Source of the DNA: Spirochaetaceae bacterium
GTDB taxonomy: Bacteria; Spirochaetota; Spirochaetia; Treponematales; Treponemataceae
Assembly: GCA_017646305.1 (NCBI GenBank)
Contig: JAGCMR010000301.1
Location: forward strand, 1 to 5,261
Length of the DNA: 5,261 nt
Direction: 5' to 3'
Shown here: piece after piece, positions 1 to 5,261 of the stretch
Layout: each line of letters opens with the position of its first letter
Position numbering within the stretch: the stretch's first letter is position 1
The notes under the pieces: generated by a model
Database searches by the model: none
Told to the model about the DNA's origin: nothing
What the model saw: only the letters and a program-made list of their open reading frames with translations
Position numbers and translations under genes: made by a program

Positions 1-275
1 TTGAGCTTGTAGGCCTCATCAATCTTCATGCCCTTACAGGCCTCAGAAAGGATTGAGGTAGAAGCAATGGCACTGGCACAACCATAGGTCTTCCAGCGAA
101 CATCTTCAATAACATCATCCTTAATCCGCAACAAAATCAACATCTGGTCACCACACTTGATGTTACCAACAATTCCACGACCATCACAAGGCCACTGGGC
201 TTCATCCTCCATGAGAACATTTTTAGGGTTCATGAAGTGCTCTTTTACAATATCTGAATACAACCAATCTTGCAT
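1..275 (-). CDS. nifU: NifU/IscU-type Fe-S cluster assembly scaffold, N-terminal part (runs off left edge)
   Basis: Scaffold protein on which sulfide from a cysteine desulfurase and iron are assembled into [2Fe-2S]/[4Fe-4S] clusters before transfer to apoproteins in the cytoplasm. The 91 codons visible start MQDWLYSDIVKEHF and match the NifU_N/IscU fold. The first cluster-ligand motif is KCGDQM (Cys41, Asp43) and the second is TYGCASAIAS (Cys66), which corresponds to the YGCxSAIASS signature. The third ligand cysteine would lie beyond the window, so it is unknown whether this is a short IscU-like protein or a longer NifU. The start is fixed by a strong AGGAG nine bases upstream. The gene lies 21 nt after the stop of the desulfurase gene on the same strand, so it is very probably the third gene of the mnmA-nifS-nifU operon. 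A WPCDGRG segment (Cys30) before the first ligand motif adds a cysteine not found in E. coli IscU. The family call is firm; the symbol nifU versus iscU is a convention. Confidence 0.93.
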   Translation of the reverse strand, partial: MQDWLYSDIVKEHFMNPKNVLMEDEAQWPCDGRGIVGNIKCGDQMLILLRIKDDVIEDVRWKTYGCASAIASTSILSEACKGMKIDEAYKL

Positions 276-296: not shown

Positions 297-1463
297 TTAT
301 TCTGTATATGATACGGTGGACATTTTCCGCAAGCGCTCAATAACGGGAGGGAAATTCTCCAGCACGAAATTTACTTCTTCTGGGGTATTGTACTTTCCAA
401 AGCTAAAGCGAATGGAACCATGGGCTAGTTCAGGACCAAGACCTGTGGCCATCAACACGTGGGATGGATCAAGGCTGGCAGAGGCACAGGCAGAACCTGT
501 GGAAGCGGCCACACCCAACAAGTCCAAGTACAGGAGGATGGCCTCACCTTCGGCACCAGGGAAGGACACGTTCAAGGTGTTAGGAAGAACCTTTGTTTCG
601 TGGCCGTTGATGCGGATTCCTGGAATAGCCTTCAAAAGCCCATCCTTCAGCTGCTGGCGAAGCTTGCCAGTAAATGCAGCATACTCAGCCAATTCCTTGC
701 CGGCCAATTCAGCAGCATATCCAAAGGCTGCAATGGCAGGACCGTTATAAGTACCAGCTCTCAGTCCATGCTCCTGATGACCACCACGAATCAAAGCTTC
801 GATGGGAGTACGCTCCTTAACATACAAGGCTCCCACACCCTTGGGGCCATAAATCTTGTGGGCAGAAAGGGTGGCATAATCCACACCCCAATCCTTAAAA
901 TCTACGGGAATCTTTCCTGCAGCCTGAACAGCGTCAGTGTGGAACAAGGAGCCTACCTCATGAGCCATGGTACAAAGGCTTTTGATATCCTGAATAGTTC
1001 CAATCTCGTTGTTGGCAGTCATAATAGAAACAAGAAGAGGCTTCTTTTCCAGAGCCTTCTTGTAGCTTTCCATATCTACAATACCAGCATCATCAACAGG
1101 CAAATAAATTACCTCAAAGCCAAACTGACTTTCCAAGCGACGGCTAGCTTCCAGAACACAGGGATGCTCGATAGCAGTGGTAACAATAACCTTGTTGTTC
1201 CGCTTCTTGGATAGCTCCACCATGGTATTAAATACCATATTGTTAGACTCAGAGCCACCAGAAGTAAATACAAGCTCAGAAGCATTGGCATTTACCAAGG
1301 CTCCAATCTGCCGACGAGCCTGTTCTATGGTAGCTGCAACCTCTCGACCTTCCTGGTGCAAGCTTGAACCATTGGCATATTCAGCCAATTCCTTGACATA
1401 AAAATCATAGACCTCCTTGGAAAGAGGGGTTGTAGCATTATAATCAAAATAAATACGATTCAT
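297..1463 (-). CDS. nifS: Cysteine desulfurase, NifS/IscS type (group I)
   Basis: PLP-dependent enzyme that converts L-cysteine to alanine and a protein-bound persulfide, the sulfur source for Fe-S clusters and tRNA thiolation. It is 388 residues, the usual length. Visible hallmarks are the N-terminal YFDYNATTP motif, SGGSESNN near residues 68-75, EHP with His100 (cofactor stacking), HTDAVQ with Asp177, the Schiff-base lysine in SAHK (Lys203), RAGTYN at 235-240, and the mobile-loop catalytic cysteine in STGSAC (Cys326) followed by ASASLDPSHV. The loop form places it in group I (NifS/IscS) rather than SufS. Its ATG overlaps the mnmA stop as ATGA with no strong Shine-Dalgarno, which points to translational coupling. 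The adjacent scaffold gene makes Fe-S assembly its main job, and the MnmA neighbour adds a likely role in s2U34 synthesis. All key residues are present, so it should be active. NifS versus IscS naming cannot be decided from sequence alone. Confidence 0.97.
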   Translation of the reverse strand: MNRIYFDYNATTPLSKEVYDFYVKELAEYANGSSLHQEGREVAATIEQARRQIGALVNANASELVFTSGGSESNNMVFNTMVELSKKRNNKVIVTTAIEHPCVLEASRRLESQFGFEVIYLPVDDAGIVDMESYKKALEKKPLLVSIMTANNEIGTIQDIKSLCTMAHEVGSLFHTDAVQAAGKIPVDFKDWGVDYATLSAHKIYGPKGVGALYVKERTPIEALIRGGHQEHGLRAGTYNGPAIAAFGYAAELAGKELAEYAAFTGKLRQQLKDGLLKAIPGIRINGHETKVLPNTLNVSFPGAEGEAILLYLDLLGVAASTGSACASASLDPSHVLMATGLGPELAHGSIRFSFGKYNTPEEVNFVLENFPPVIERLRKMSTVSYTE

Positions 1464-2632
1464 CTTATTTCTCGGGAAATAATCCCGCCTCCAAAAATAA
1501 TTCCATTTAAATATACTACAGCAGACTGGCCTGGGGCAACTGCCCGCTGTGGTTCATCAAAAATAATCTGATAGGAACCGTCTCCAACAGGGTAAATGGT
1601 GCTGGAGGCGGCGGGAGAGGCAAGGCGAATCTTTACCTGTCCCTTAAAACTTGATTTGGGCTGGTAACCACCTGCCCACACCCAATTTTCGGCCACCAAG
1701 CCAGAACACAGAAGGTCCTGGTCGTCGCACAGTACCACCTGATTCTTTTGGGAATCGATGGAATGAACATAGAGGGGACGATTGGAGCTAACTCCTAATC
1801 CTCGCCGCTGGCCGATGGTATAATGGTGGATGCCACGATGGACACCTAGCTTTTTTCCCGCCAAATTTACAATGTCTCCCGGCTGAGAAATTTGGTCGGA
1901 AAAGATAATATCCAGATAAGTATCTGGAATAAAGTCCTGACTTTCACTGCGGGAGGCTGCTGCCAGGCCTCGCTCTTGGGCCATGGCATATACTTCCTGC
2001 TTGGTGTAGGCAGACAGGGGAAAACGAACCTTTTCCAAGGTAGCAGAAGGAACACGGCACAAGAAATAGGTCTGATCCTTCCGCTTGTCGGTGGCAGCAG
2101 AAATCATAACCGGTCTCACTGATTCCTGGGAATCCACCTCATCTCCGTAGATAAGTCGCAAGTCCTCTGTTGGGCGTACCAAGGTGGCATAGTGACCGGT
2201 ACAAAAATAGTCAAAATCTATCCCCTTTGCTCGAACACCATCTAACAAGGCCCCAAATTTTACATTGGGATTGCAATTTACGCAGGGATTAGGAGTGCGA
2301 CCATTTCTGTATTCCGCCTTGAAATAATCAAGCACATGGTGGTGATAGGCTTCCCGCACATCAATCACGTGATGCTCGATTCCCTGCTGCTGGCAAAAAG
2401 CCTGACATTGGGCTATATCAATAGCTTCATCTGGACCATAGCAAGAACCACGAACCCCTTCTGCAGAAGGAGGTAATGGAAGATCATTGGCCCAGCTGGA
2501 CATGGTAACTCCCACAACAGTACAGCCGTGTTCCTTTAACAATAAGGCTACTAAGGTAGAGTCAACACCACCAGACATTCCCACTGCAACAAGGGAACCT
2601 GGCTCTGGCATAGAAAGTTTTTCCCAATCCAT
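1460..2632 (-). CDS. mnmA: tRNA-specific 2-thiouridylase MnmA, variant lacking the second conserved cysteine
   Basis: Catalyses ATP-dependent 2-thiolation of U34 in the tRNAs for Lys, Glu and Gln. It is 390 residues, slightly longer than usual. The ATP-pyrophosphatase P-loop SGGVDS is at 20-25, GRTPNPCVNCN at 111-121 gives Cys117 and Cys120, then come TGHYA (145-149), DQTYFL (186-191) and YTIGQRRGLG in the tRNA-binding central part, followed by a C-terminal beta-barrel. The usual SQDICFIP motif reads SQDFIP (231-236): the two residues that include the second functional cysteine are missing, with the frame intact. There is an extra CYGPDE motif (Cys64) after the P-loop region. It is first in an operon with the desulfurase that can supply its sulfur. 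Met1 (2632) has only a weak AAGAAG about 13 nt upstream; Met8 (2611) is an alternative start that would also keep the whole P-loop domain. The family is certain, but the sulfur-transfer chemistry may differ from E. coli. Confidence 0.94.
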   Translation of the reverse strand: MDWEKLSMPEPGSLVAVGMSGGVDSTLVALLLKEHGCTVVGVTMSSWANDLPLPPSAEGVRGSCYGPDEAIDIAQCQAFCQQQGIEHHVIDVREAYHHHVLDYFKAEYRNGRTPNPCVNCNPNVKFGALLDGVRAKGIDFDYFCTGHYATLVRPTEDLRLIYGDEVDSQESVRPVMISAATDKRKDQTYFLCRVPSATLEKVRFPLSAYTKQEVYAMAQERGLAAASRSESQDFIPDTYLDIIFSDQISQPGDIVNLAGKKLGVHRGIHHYTIGQRRGLGVSSNRPLYVHSIDSQKNQVVLCDDQDLLCSGLVAENWVWAGGYQPKSSFKGQVKIRLASPAASSTIYPVGDGSYQIIFDEPQRAVAPGQSAVVYLNGIIFGGGIISREIR

Positions 2633-2677: not shown

Positions 2678-2742
2678 ACATTTTTCCTATAGTTTTAGTA
2701 TGAAATAAAACACTTATTGACAAAACCACACCTTTCCCATAG
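2678..2742. repeat. Imperfect direct repeat, two 15-bp copies 50 bp apart, possible operator pair
   Basis: ACATTTTTCCTATAG at 2678-2692 and ACACCTTTCCCATAG at 2728-2742 match at 12 of 15 positions. All three differences are C/T transitions, and AAAAC lies just before each copy (with one extra base in the second). The copies are exactly 50 bp apart, close to five helical turns. The second overlaps the first bases of the -10 of the plus-strand promoter; the first lies between mnmA and its candidate -10. This arrangement is what a regulator binding to the same DNA face twice would need, but an old local duplication or chance is possible. Confidence 0.4.
2695..2723 (-). promoter_or_regulatory. 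Possible promoter of the mnmA-nifS-nifU operon
   Basis: On the minus strand TTGTCA (2723-2718) differs from the -35 consensus at one base and overlaps the plus-strand TTGACA. The -10 is poor: TACTAA (2700-2695) at 17-bp spacing, or CATACT (2702-2697) at 15 bp. If real, the two promoters are back to back and share the -35 bases, so a single bound protein or polymerase could affect both directions. The weak -10 would suit an activator-dependent promoter, but it may also be chance in AT-rich DNA. Confidence 0.28.
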
Positions 2743-2745
2743 AGT
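2717..2745 (+). promoter_or_regulatory. Sigma70-type promoter of the Fe-S/c-di-GMP sensor gene
   Basis: A perfect TTGACA -35 hexamer at 2717-2722 is followed after 17 bp by TAGAGT at 2740-2745. That -10 keeps four of six consensus bases, including the important first T, second A and last T. Transcription would start near 2752, leaving a leader of about 21 nt before the ATG at 2773. The short leader excludes a long riboswitch. The only Shine-Dalgarno-like sequence is GGGGG at 2761-2765, seven bases before the ATG, which suggests modest translation. Confidence 0.65.
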
Positions 2746-2772: not shown

Positions 2773-5261
2773 ATGCAACAGTTGGAAAAACAAGTTATTT
2801 TCACCAATGAAAAGTGTATTGGATGCAATAGATGTATAGCATCCTGTCCAGTTCCGGGAGCCAATATTGCAGCTCATCAAAACGGACAGCGCTATATATT
2901 GGTGGATAACACCCGTTGTATCCACTGCGGTCATTGTCTGGAAGGGTGTCCTCAGTCAGCACGAGAATACGTTGATGATACCAAACGTTTTTTTGAGGAC
3001 TTACAATCAGGCCAACCCATTTCTGCCATTGTGTCTCCTGTACTGTGGCTCCAATATCCAGAAAAAGCCTCTCAGATTCTTGGTTATCTTCGTTCCCTCG
3101 GAGTGAGGAAATTTTTTGATGCAGCTGCTGGTTCAGATATTGTTACTTGGGCCCATACAAATTACCTCCAAGAGCATACTGGTCCCATGATTTCTTCTAC
3201 CTGTAGTGCCTTGGTAAACTATGTGGAAAAGGTTCAGCCAGAGCTTATTCCAAATCTGGTACCCATTCACACCCCATCTGTTTGTCTTGCAATCTATCTA
3301 AGAAAATATCGTAATATACAAGATCGTCTTGTGTATTTAAGTCCCTGTATTGCAGATTATGATCAAATCACCTCCCCTGAAACTCAGGATGTCATTACCT
3401 ATCACGTTACGATTACAGAATTGATGAAGGCTATTGGAGATCAAGATATTTCAGCTTATTCCAGCCAGCTCAATCTTTTGGGAATCGGACCTAGGGGACG
3501 ATTATATTTTCCTGGTGGTTTAAAAGAAAATCTAGATCATTTTTTGGGCACAGCAGATATGAGAATCCAGCTTACTGGAATCGATTCCCTAGGAGAAGGA
3601 GACGGCTCCTTGATTCATCTGCTTCGGGAAAATAAAGAGAGTATCTTCATCGATTTTCTTGACTGCAAGCATGGCTGTCTTTTAGGAACAGGAACAAAAT
3701 CCCAGGAATGTCATCTAAAGGATATTCTCACAGAATATAAGCTGCAAGCTAGAAAAGCTCCTAGTATGACTCGTGAGGATAACCCCTACAACGGTAGCCT
3801 TTCTGAAAAAAGAAGGCTACAGCTTTTACAAAGAAAATTTGCCAGCCTTTCTGCTCAGGATTTTCAGCGGAAATTCAATTCCCTGCGGATTCCAGAAAAG
3901 AAAGTGACACCAGAAGAGGTGGAGGAGGTTTTCCAAAAGCTTTATAAAACTACAGAGGTAAGCCGTACTATAAATTGTCAGGATTGCGGCTACAAAACCT
4001 GCACCAACATGGCAGAGGCTATTGCACGAGGATATAGCACTATCTACAGCTGTACCCAGTATCAGCAAGGCGTGATGATTAAAATGTCTACCACAGACAT
4101 TATTACAGGAATTCCCAACAAGGCTATGTTATTTAAGGCGGGAGAAAAGTTATTTCAAGACAAAACCTTTGCCAACTATGTGTACGTGCTGCTGGACATC
4201 AACCATTTTGGTTCATTTAACACTCGATTTGGCTATGAAAGGGCTAATAGTATTTTAGTGGACTTTAGTCAGGCAGCCCAGCGATACTTAGAGCCAGAGG
4301 AACAGCTATTCCACGTAGAGGCAGACAAATTTGTGGCCATATTGAACAAGCCTCATCTAAAATACTATATCTTCCTGATTAACAATCTTATGCTTACCAC
4401 CTTAACGGAGGATACAAAGTTTCCCCTAAAGCTTACAGTACGCAGTGGTGCCTACGATCCAGATGGAACAGAGGAAAGCTTTGCCGAAATTGCACGGACA
4501 TTGTTATCTGCTAGTGCCATGAAAAATCAAGGCTTTAACAATGAAACAGTCATTTACAATAAATCCAACGTGGATTCAGCCTTGAGTCCCATGATGTACA
4601 TCCAACAAATTCCCCAGGCCCTGGCTAACAAGGAATTTGAGATTGTGTACCAGCCTAAGGTAGGGGTTCATGACCACAAGCTTAAGGGTGCAGAAGCCCT
4701 TGTCCGTTGGAAAAAAGACGGGAAATTCGTTCCTCCTAGCATCTTTATTCCCATCTGTGAGTCTGCAGGATTAATTCAGCAGCTGGACTTTTACATCTTG
4801 AACCAAGTGTGCAACACCATGGACACGTGGATTCAGCAGGGCTTGGAGCCAGTAAAGGTTTCCGTCAATTTTTCCAAGCAGAACTTTACCATGCCAGACA
4901 TTGGCAAGCGAATTTGCAATATTGTAGACAACTGGCAGATTCCCCACCATCTCATTGAAATTGAGTTTACGGAAACAGCCTATAACGAAGATGAAAAAAT
5001 GCTGGACAAGGCTATTCGTGTGTTGAATGAAAAGGGATTTTCTGCCTCCATCGATGATTTTGGCAGTGGATATTCTTCATTAAGCCTGTTGGAAAATTTG
5101 AAATTCGATGTTTTGAAGCTGGATAAGTCCCTGATTGATACCATTCTCCAAAATCCCCAGTCAAAGATTGTGGTGACAAACATTGTGCGCATGGCAAAGG
5201 AGCTAAACATGGAGCTGGTGGCAGAAGGAGTTGAAACACGAGAAACCCTGCAGGTACTAAA
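2773..5261 (+). CDS. Multi-cluster Fe-S / [FeFe]-hydrogenase-like sensor fused to degenerate GGDEF and EAL (c-di-GMP phosphodiesterase), C-terminus cut by window
   Basis: A single uninterrupted frame of 829 codons runs off the right edge. Domains in order: two ferredoxin motifs, C15-C18-C21-C25P and C49-C52-C55-C59P; an Fe_hyd_lg_C-like domain at about 80-315, with cluster cysteines C144 (SSTCSALVNYVEK), C192 (LSPCIAD), C298 and C302 (DCKHGC); a charged linker at about 320-395; an Fe-S motif C402-x2-C405-x4-C410-x16-C427, like the RnfB-type 4Fe-4S domain; a GGDEF fold at about 440-600 starting TDIITGIPNK, with the signature degraded to EADKF (516-520); and an EAL domain from about 612 with Q627, E641 (GAEALVRW), N699, E731, D761/D762 (DDFGSGYSSL), K782 and E818 (AEGVET). 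Known families imply a cytoplasmic redox or H2-type sensor controlling c-di-GMP hydrolysis; there is no signal peptide or membrane segment. Loss of the proton-relay Cys (T143 instead) and of the conserved Lys (D195 instead) argues against hydrogenase catalysis. The ATG at 2773 is well placed, 14 residues before the first ligand cysteine. The domain calls are firm; the stimulus is inferred. The last part of the EAL domain is not visible. Confidence 0.92.
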   Translation, partial: MQQLEKQVIFTNEKCIGCNRCIASCPVPGANIAAHQNGQRYILVDNTRCIHCGHCLEGCPQSAREYVDDTKRFFEDLQSGQPISAIVSPVLWLQYPEKASQILGYLRSLGVRKFFDAAAGSDIVTWAHTNYLQEHTGPMISSTCSALVNYVEKVQPELIPNLVPIHTPSVCLAIYLRKYRNIQDRLVYLSPCIADYDQITSPETQDVITYHVTITELMKAIGDQDISAYSSQLNLLGIGPRGRLYFPGGLKENLDHFLGTADMRIQLTGIDSLGEGDGSLIHLLRENKESIFIDFLDCKHGCLLGTGTKSQECHLKDILTEYKLQARKAPSMTREDNPYNGSLSEKRRLQLLQRKFASLSAQDFQRKFNSLRIPEKKVTPEEVEEVFQKLYKTTEVSRTINCQDCGYKTCTNMAEAIARGYSTIYSCTQYQQGVMIKMSTTDIITGIPNKAMLFKAGEKLFQDKTFANYVYVLLDINHFGSFNTRFGYERANSILVDFSQAAQRYLEPEEQLFHVEADKFVAILNKPHLKYYIFLINNLMLTTLTEDTKFPLKLTVRSGAYDPDGTEESFAEIARTLLSASAMKNQGFNNETVIYNKSNVDSALSPMMYIQQIPQALANKEFEIVYQPKVGVHDHKLKGAEALVRWKKDGKFVPPSIFIPICESAGLIQQLDFYILNQVCNTMDTWIQQGLEPVKVSVNFSKQNFTMPDIGKRICNIVDNWQIPHHLIEIEFTETAYNEDEKMLDKAIRVLNEKGFSASIDDFGSGYSSLSLLENLKFDVLKLDKSLIDTILQNPQSKIVVTNIVRMAKELNMELVAEGVETRETLQVL

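What the first reader, a model, noticed from the sequence alone, without database searches (positions are those of the whole stretch)
2773..5261. [FeFe]-hydrogenase-like Fe-S sensor fused in one polypeptide to a GGDEF-EAL c-di-GMP module
Seen: one continuous frame carries 2x[4Fe-4S], an H-cluster-like domain, an additional 4Fe-4S motif, GGDEF and EAL. Established: sensory-type [FeFe] hydrogenases (HydS-like) with the same N-terminal order, usually followed by PAS and a kinase or phosphatase output, are known in anaerobes. Inferred: here the output is c-di-GMP turnover with no PAS domain between, so H2, redox potential, O2 or Fe-S status could be read directly into the motile/sessile switch. 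I do not know of a characterised protein with this architecture.
Basis: partly seen in the sequence, partly recalled or inferred. Interest (0 to 1): 0.88.

Follow-up and report, generated by a model that had tools for sequence, protein, structure and literature searches.

The report
Hydrogenase-fold iron-sulfur switch for c-di-GMP
One gene, closest to genes of gut spirochaetes (Treponema), encodes a hydrogenase-shaped, predicted iron-sulfur protein fused to a c-di-GMP phosphodiesterase domain; it likely links redox or iron-sulfur state to the swim-or-stick decision, and in this lineage it has probably lost the site that would bind hydrogen.

Summary
One open frame (2773-5259, running off the window; close relatives 859-863 aa) holds 2x[4Fe-4S], a [FeFe]-hydrogenase H-domain, a Cx2Cx4Cx16C cluster motif, a degenerate GGDEF and an EAL domain. 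It is a conserved family: 71 of 120 listed database hits share it, and 9 of 10 held genomes in the genus of the closest held genome carry it. All 16 cluster cysteines are kept in 71 of 72 proteins, the EAL residues in 72 of 72, an intact GGDEF motif in 0 of 72. The same sensor module is also fused to chemotaxis (MCP) and other outputs.

H2 sensing is weakened for this lineage. The position of CpI K358 (diiron-anchoring lysine, role recalled) is Asp in the window and all 23 close relatives; all 48 listed siblings with other outputs keep Lys. Proton relays of groups A and D are both missing. hydG is found in only 2 of 10 genomes of the genus. Most likely: a c-di-GMP phosphodiesterase gated by iron-sulfur clusters (redox or Fe-S status), probably without [2Fe]H. 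Its divergent neighbours are Fe-S supply genes. Caveat: the same draft genomes keep an intact HydA, so the missing maturases are not understood.

The parts
2773..5259 (+). FeFe-hydrogenase-like / GGDEF-EAL fusion ORF, 829 aa in the window, open at the window end (close relatives 859-863 aa)
2806..2961 (+). N-terminal 2x[4Fe-4S] ferredoxin-like domain, cysteines 15, 18, 21, 25 and 49, 52, 55, 59
   Evidence: Pfam; each Cys in 72 of 72 EAL fusions
3013..3708 (+). [not shown]
3202..3204 (+). L1 cysteine C144, expected ligand of [4Fe-4S]H; the residue before it (C299 of CpI) is Thr
3346..3357 (+). L2 motif: C192 kept; Asp195 stands where CpI has K358
3664..3678 (+). L3 motif CKHGC: C298 and C302, the remaining expected [4Fe-4S]H ligands
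3976..4053 (+). C-terminal motif Cx2Cx4Cx16C (C402, C405, C410, C427), as in HydS groups C and D
   Evidence: PF04060; motif definition PMC8163306 (passages)
4054..4092 (+). predicted helix 428-440 joining the last cluster cysteine directly to the GGDEF domain; no PAS between
   Evidence: AlphaFold2 model, mean pLDDT 86.5
4090..4362 (+). GGDEF domain (Pfam match); motif degenerate, EADKF at 4318-4332
4603..5259 (+). EAL phosphodiesterase domain with E641, N699, E734, D761, D762, K782, E818; cut at the window end
2717..2745 (+). promoter-like site TTGACA-17-TAGAGT; TTGACA in 6 of 6 aligned intergenic regions, TAGAGT in 5 of 6
1460..2632 (-). mnmA, tRNA 2-thiouridine synthase, divergent neighbour
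   Evidence: NCBIfam above cut-off; conserved in 5 of 5 window-type loci
297..1463 (-). nifS-like cysteine desulfurase
   Evidence: Pfam; NCBIfam NifS 468 bits, under its cut-off of 530.75
3..275 (-). nifU-like Fe-S scaffold gene, cut at the window start (NifU_N; the full relative in L004 also has Fer2_BFD)

Best explanation
The gene encodes a hydrogenase-fold protein with the cysteine sets for four [4Fe-4S] clusters fused to a broken GGDEF and an intact EAL domain, and it likely hydrolyses c-di-GMP under control of the state of its predicted clusters, probably without the hydrogen-binding diiron site. Shown from sequence and calls: the domain order, the conserved cysteines, the intact EAL residues, the lost GGDEF motif, and Asp in place of the lysine at CpI K358. 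Inferred: the four motifs bind [4Fe-4S] clusters; an oxidation-state or occupancy change of the clusters reaches the predicted helix 428-440 that follows the last cluster cysteine; this changes the GGDEF-EAL arrangement and so phosphodiesterase activity, as the haem-PAS domain does in DosP. The signal is then redox state, O2/NO damage or Fe-S supply rather than H2, which fits the divergent nifU-nifS-mnmA neighbours. The direction (on or off when clusters are oxidised) cannot be read from sequence.
Against: No biochemistry. Five of five window-type genomes keep a group A HydA with intact TSCCP / PCTAKK / EVMAC motifs, which should need HydEFG; so missing maturases may reflect gaps in draft genomes or unknown maturation. 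One window-type genome (G004) does have hydEFG, and the window's own genome is not held. Across 30 spirochaete loci Lys does not track HydEFG: 5 of 11 with, 5 of 19 without. All 13 minimum changes of the lysine fall in the EAL clade, but that clade holds 40.9 of 53.9 units of branch length (p 0.028). G090 (one contig of 3.43 of about 3.5 Mb), with no hydE, hydF or hydG found, still keeps Lys in two other PF02906 proteins. Most MCP siblings also lack Ser at the S232 position (42 of 48 Ala). Neighbourhood is circumstantial. The role of K358 is recalled; no paper read here names it.
Confidence: 0.55

Rival explanations
1. A true H2 sensor: a complete H-cluster is inserted and H2 binding switches the EAL phosphodiesterase.
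For: All four [4Fe-4S]H cysteines kept; the characterised proteins of nearest layout, TmHydS and TamHydS, can bind a full H-cluster (PMC10055695 introduction, PMC8163306 passages); the genomes carry HydA, and T. brennaborense (G009, Lys at the position) carries hydEFG.
Against: Asp at the K358 position and Val at S232 in the window and its 23 close relatives; C299 and E252 proton relays absent; hydG in 2 of 10 genomes of the genus against the fusion in 9 of 10. PMC10055695 (introduction) says the residues that stabilise [2Fe] are conserved in sensory enzymes; here one of them, as recalled, is not.
Confidence: 0.25
2. A c-di-GMP receptor without hydrolysis (LapD/FimX type): EAL binds c-di-GMP and the protein signals by contact.
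For: Broken GGDEF in 72 of 72; LapD and FimX are among the weaker matches.
Against: Every EAL metal and base residue examined is kept in 72 of 72, and the best sequence match, DosP, is an active phosphodiesterase (PMC4263535 start of abstract).
Confidence: 0.1
3. A partner-dependent sensor: the FeFe-EAL protein is the output of a FIST-domain (NosP-like haem/NO) protein and the H-domain is mainly a scaffold.
For: A FIST gene lies directly upstream on the same strand in 16 of 36 genomes with the fusion; evidence suggests that FIST domains may bind NO or haem, and they occur in proteins that act on EAL proteins (PMC8846402, passages).
Against: No FIST gene beside the fusion in any of the 5 window-type genomes, and none found at all in 4 of 5.
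Confidence: 0.06
4. Assembly or frame artefact joining two genes.
For: The frame is cut by the window end.
Against: The same fusion recurs in 71 of 120 listed hits and in 35 of 215 sampled genomes, including the 3.06-Mb contig of T. brennaborense.
Confidence: 0.01

Closest known systems
Putative sensory [FeFe]-hydrogenases, HydS group C (M2f; TmHydS) and group D (M2e; TamHydS)
   Same: 2x[4Fe-4S], H-domain and Cx2Cx4Cx16C motif in one chain; C299, M353 and M497 replaced; group D also has no PAS (PMC8163306 passages)
   Different: Fused output GGDEF-EAL; Asp at the K358 position; group D relay E252 is Leu; separate on the tree from three ~600-aa paralogues that I labelled group C by motif and size (PAS not tested in them). 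TmHydS and TamHydS themselves were not aligned
HydDB [FeFe] group C2, 'chemotactic (putative)' (PMC5037454, passages)
   Same: The MCP-fused siblings share the sensor module (3697 hits to a sensor query; 117 of the 120 listed carry PF00015) and are probably what C2 describes; the HydDB tool itself was not run
   Different: Output is c-di-GMP hydrolysis, not chemotaxis; 86 of 88 EAL-fusion rows form one clade (SH-aLRT 98)
DosP (EcDOS), haem-PAS O2-sensing phosphodiesterase
   Same: Cofactor-based sensor before GGDEF-EAL; best sequence match of the output half, among the top three fold entries
   Different: Sensor is haem-PAS, not Fe-S/hydrogenase
[NiFe] group 2c, 'diguanylate cyclase-linked (putative)' (PMC5037454, passages)
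   Same: A hydrogenase proposed to feed c-di-GMP signalling
   Different: Unrelated metalloprotein, linked to synthesis rather than hydrolysis, and not shown here to be a fusion
Nar1/IOP1/NARFL (recalled, no call)
   Same: Hydrogenase fold that works with [4Fe-4S] clusters and without the diiron site, in Fe-S biology
   Different: Eukaryotic cytosolic Fe-S assembly factor; no c-di-GMP output

Membership tests
[FeFe]-hydrogenase group A | C299 proton relay, M353, M497, lysine in L2 | tested here: not met
   Window: Thr, Ser, Leu, Asp; TIGR02512 77.8 bits against a cut-off of 405.95
[FeFe]-hydrogenase group B | NCBIfam FeFe_hydrog_B1 cut-off | tested here: not met
   TIGR04105 128.1 bits against 450
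HydS group C (M2f) | PAS domain after the C-terminal cluster | tested here: not met
   No PAS in the Pfam scan; the cluster motif runs into GGDEF. One longer relative, P0057, carries PAS after the EAL domain
HydS groups C and D | C-terminal Cx2Cx4Cx16C cluster motif | tested here: met
   C402, C405, C410, C427 in 72 of 72
HydS group D (M2e) | Ser/Thr at M353 | tested here: met
   Ser190; Ser in 57 and Gly in 15 of 72
HydS group D (M2e) | E252-E289-S249-D265 proton path | tested here: not met
   E252 is Leu, S249 is Pro, E289 is Asp in the window (positions placed by the GG and L3 motifs, TamHydS itself was not aligned); D265 not placed
H2-activating hydrogenase | four cysteines for [4Fe-4S]H | tested here: met
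   C144, C192, C298, C302
H2-activating hydrogenase | lysine that H-bonds the distal cyanide (K358; role recalled) | tested here: not met
   Asp195, as in the 23 close relatives
H2-activating hydrogenase | HydEFG in the genome | tested here: inconclusive
   Window genome not held; all three in 1 of 5 window-type genomes, HydG in 2 of 10 in the genus, yet HydA intact in 5 of 5
EAL c-di-GMP phosphodiesterase | EAL, N, E, DD, K, E catalytic set | tested here: met
   72 of 72
EAL c-di-GMP phosphodiesterase | hydrolysis of c-di-GMP | not testable with these tools
   needs an assay
Diguanylate cyclase | GG[D/E]EF motif | tested here: not met
   EADKF in the window; 0 of 72 intact
HydDB C2 chemotactic | methyl-accepting chemotaxis output | tested here: not met
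   No PF00015 in the window protein

The most novel reading that the evidence does not exclude
A retired hydrogenase: in this Treponema lineage the H-domain has given up the H2-activating diiron site (charge reversal Lys to Asp/Glu, both known proton relays gone, maturases mostly absent) but keeps every [4Fe-4S] ligand. It now serves as a pure iron-sulfur switch on a c-di-GMP phosphodiesterase, placed beside the genes that make iron-sulfur clusters, so that Fe-S or redox status sets the motile/attached state directly.
Probability: 0.45. Interest if true: 0.82.

Novelty: new variant of a known kind. Interest (0 to 1): 0.64.

Why it matters
Signalling by sensory [FeFe]-hydrogenases is unproven; PMC13104023 (passages) closes by calling for their interaction partners to be identified. 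Here input and output sit in one chain with a simple assay (c-di-GMP to pGpG), so cluster state, H2, O2 and NO can be tested directly. The lineage series with Lys, Asp/Glu or other residues offers natural variants to ask when a hydrogenase stops being one. A 2022 census of c-di-GMP sensory inputs does not hold the terms 'hydrogenase', 'iron-sulfur' or 'Fe-S' (PMC8846402, term search of the main text), so an Fe-S receptor would be a new input class relative to that census.

Tried and rejected
HydEFG presence explaining the lysine: rejected as a simple rule (5 of 11 vs 5 of 19). Loss of S232 as a second mark of diiron loss: weak, since most MCP siblings have Ala there (42 of 48); only Val in the window type is distinctive. 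FIST partner as a general rule: fails in the window type. Assigning the family to HydS group D: fails on E252. RNA element: no Rfam match in the window. Paper listings for the architecture gave no description of it: 2 listed; 1; 1; 52 found, 15 listed; HydDB the only listed one with 'cyclic di-GMP'; FIST domain with hydrogenase, 0; 35 found, 15 listed. The unlisted papers of 38 and 77 were not seen. Searches (2 listed; 81 found, 12 listed; 5 listed) did not lead me to a statement on K358 or on HydA without HydEFG. (PF16916) was an ill-chosen completeness control; it rang in 10 of 12 genomes and is not used as evidence.

G009 is called T. brennaborense because its sensor part is identical on the tree to P0029, which NCBI names so, and its contig has the same length, 3,055,580. 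Group A, B and C labels of paralogues rest on motifs and size, not on HydDB. The tree is a quick search with SH-aLRT only and long outgroup branches. The fragment P0024 (also Asp) was dropped from the counts of 72. The tree left out 15 of the 72 EAL hits (14 close to rows kept, and the fragment) and used 26 of the 167 non-EAL hits on hand. Searches listed 120 of 180 and 120 of 3697 hits, and one search scored only the 7995 candidates that share most words. Transmembrane segments were not tested.

Full report
What is there. The window carries one long + strand frame, 2773-5259, 829 codons, open at the window end, divergent from mnmA, a nifS-like desulfurase and a nifU-like scaffold gene on the - strand. 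Pfam reads the frame as 4Fe-4S dicluster, Fe_hyd_lg_C, FeS (PF04060), GGDEF and EAL, each above its cut-off, with no PAS domain. In the protein search 180 proteins passed and 120 were listed; 71 of these hold both PF02906 and PF00563. The 23 closest (73-92% identity, here 'window type') are 859-863 aa long. Where a source names a protein, the near ones are from Treponema and Spirochaetaceae, more distant ones from Lachnospiraceae and Roseburia MAGs as well; the five fetched window-type loci come from MAGs, four of them from ruminant colon or rectum.

Is it a hydrogen sensor? The motifs were placed by alignment with solved hydrogenases. CpI C299 is Thr, M353 Ser, M497 Leu: the positions that are altered in sensory enzymes (PMC8163306 passages and PMC10055695 introduction). 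K358 is Asp195. That position is Lys in 48 of 48 listed siblings with other outputs (MCP, GGDEF alone, kinase) and in 33 of 72 EAL fusions. It is Asp in 24 of 72, namely the window and the 23 window-type proteins, and R, E, Q, A, M or T in the other 15. The sister pair of the Asp clade has Glu. PMC10055695 states that the residues stabilising the diiron site are conserved in sensory enzymes; that K358 is one of them is recalled. The group D proton path also fails: the E252 position is Leu in 52 of 72 and Glu in none, S249 is Pro in the window and 40 of 72 (PMC10407848 passages).

Internal control. The five window-type MAGs hold 19 PF02906 proteins; five are the fusions. All 14 others were read, with group A motifs (588-613 aa), group B-like (491-510 aa), about 600 aa (labelled group C by motif and size) and one of 701 aa, and all 14 keep Lys. 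Thus within these genomes the Asp is specific to the fusion. On the tree 86 of 88 EAL-fusion rows form one clade (SH-aLRT 98); the other two (L034, L036) arise inside the MCP/kinase part. All 13 minimum changes of the lysine lie in the large clade, 0 elsewhere (28 of 28 Lys), but the clade also holds three quarters of the branch length, so the excess is modest (p 0.028).

Maturases. In a sample of 215 genomes of the family, full-length fusions were found in 35 plus one cut by a contig end (the five source genomes are among them). HydE, HydF and HydG were searched in the same 215. Of the five window-type genomes only G004 has them. At that place G002, G003 and G005 join the flanking sequence within about 105-145 bases, and G001 lacks just the hydG-F-E stretch, so these are empty sites rather than contig ends. 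In the genus of G004, 9 of 10 genomes carry the fusion and 2 of 10 carry hydG. Against this, intact HydA is present in 5 of 5 window-type genomes, and of 22 fusion genomes with a PF02906 match of 300 bits or more only 9 have HydG. Either maturases are missing from many draft genomes, or maturation works otherwise. Across 30 loci, Lys does not follow HydEFG (5 of 11 against 5 of 19). The maturase evidence supports but does not prove loss of the diiron site.

Neighbourhood. rluB and gltA lie downstream in 8 of 14 loci, including T. brennaborense, so in this genus the gene is mostly inherited at one place. The divergent nifU-nifS-mnmA group is beside it in 5 of 5 window-type loci and the window, and was not found in the stretches held of the 9 others. 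TTGACA-17-TAGAGT upstream of the fusion is kept (TTGACA 6 of 6, TAGAGT 5 of 6); such a site is expected by chance 0.7 times in the stretch scanned, so its conservation counts more than the match. In 16 of 36 fusion genomes a FIST-domain gene lies directly upstream on the same strand: 11 seen in fetched loci, 5 from coordinates. The window type has none there. FIST domains may bind NO or haem and occur in proteins that act on EAL proteins (PMC8846402 passages). dN/dS between the window and L004, L001 and L005 is 0.059, 0.150 and 0.126 in the H-domain; dS could not be estimated there for L002 and L003 and is 1 or more where it could, so the values are rough.

Reading. The simplest account is a c-di-GMP phosphodiesterase whose hydrogenase-fold sensor carries four [4Fe-4S] clusters and which in this lineage probably lacks the diiron site. 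It would report redox, O2/NO damage or Fe-S supply, as DosP reports O2. The H2 reading remains possible, most of all for Lys-type relatives with hydEFG such as T. brennaborense. The kind (sensory [FeFe]-hydrogenase-like receptor) is known; the fused c-di-GMP output and the charge-reversed, possibly hydrogen-blind branch are the new parts. No listed paper of the searches describes them, with the limits that only part of two listings was shown and most subscription journals are not held.

Noticed in passing
L100:5625-6752, L101:5546-6658, L104:4742-5857 and 13 more genomes: A stand-alone FIST/FIST_C protein gene sits directly upstream, same strand, of the FeFe-EAL gene in 16 of 36 genomes: a candidate NO/haem partner; no paper in the library holds both 'FIST domain' and 'hydrogenase'.
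   Followed up: partly
G001, G002, G003, G005, G028, G043, G056, G075, G080, G097, G180, G186, G214: Genomes with a PF02906 match of 300 bits or more (group A type) but no HydG found: 13 of 22. The five HydA copies read in the window-type genomes have intact motifs.
   Followed up: partly
G090 (L095, L096; contig of 3,431,497 bases): Genome mostly in one contig, with no hydE, hydF or hydG found, that keeps a group B-like 538-aa protein, a 697-aa PF02906 protein and an Asn-type FeFe-EAL with a FIST neighbour.
   Followed up: partly
L094 9933-13702 (G004): hydG-hydF-hydE present in G004 and missing from the corresponding place in G001, G002, G003 and G005; gain in G004 or loss in the others was not settled.
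   Followed up: partly
L034, L036: Two EAL fusions that keep an intact GGDEF motif (YGGDEFLF) and Lys, and group with MCP/kinase fusions: apparently a second origin of the architecture.
   Followed up: no
P0057, P0058, P0060-P0062, P0071: A longer form of the fusion, 1002-1146 aa; P0057 has PAS domains after the EAL domain.
   Followed up: no
L004:10957-11355: Rrf2-family regulator gene (PF02082), third gene downstream of the fusion, with three cysteines spaced somewhat like NsrR (recalled); also matched in L001 and L005, not in L002 or L003.
   Followed up: no
database hits P0073-P0239: The same sensor module fused to methyl-accepting chemotaxis domains is common (3697 hits to a sensor query; 117 of the 120 listed with PF00015), with kinase, GGDEF-only and stand-alone forms also seen.
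   Followed up: partly
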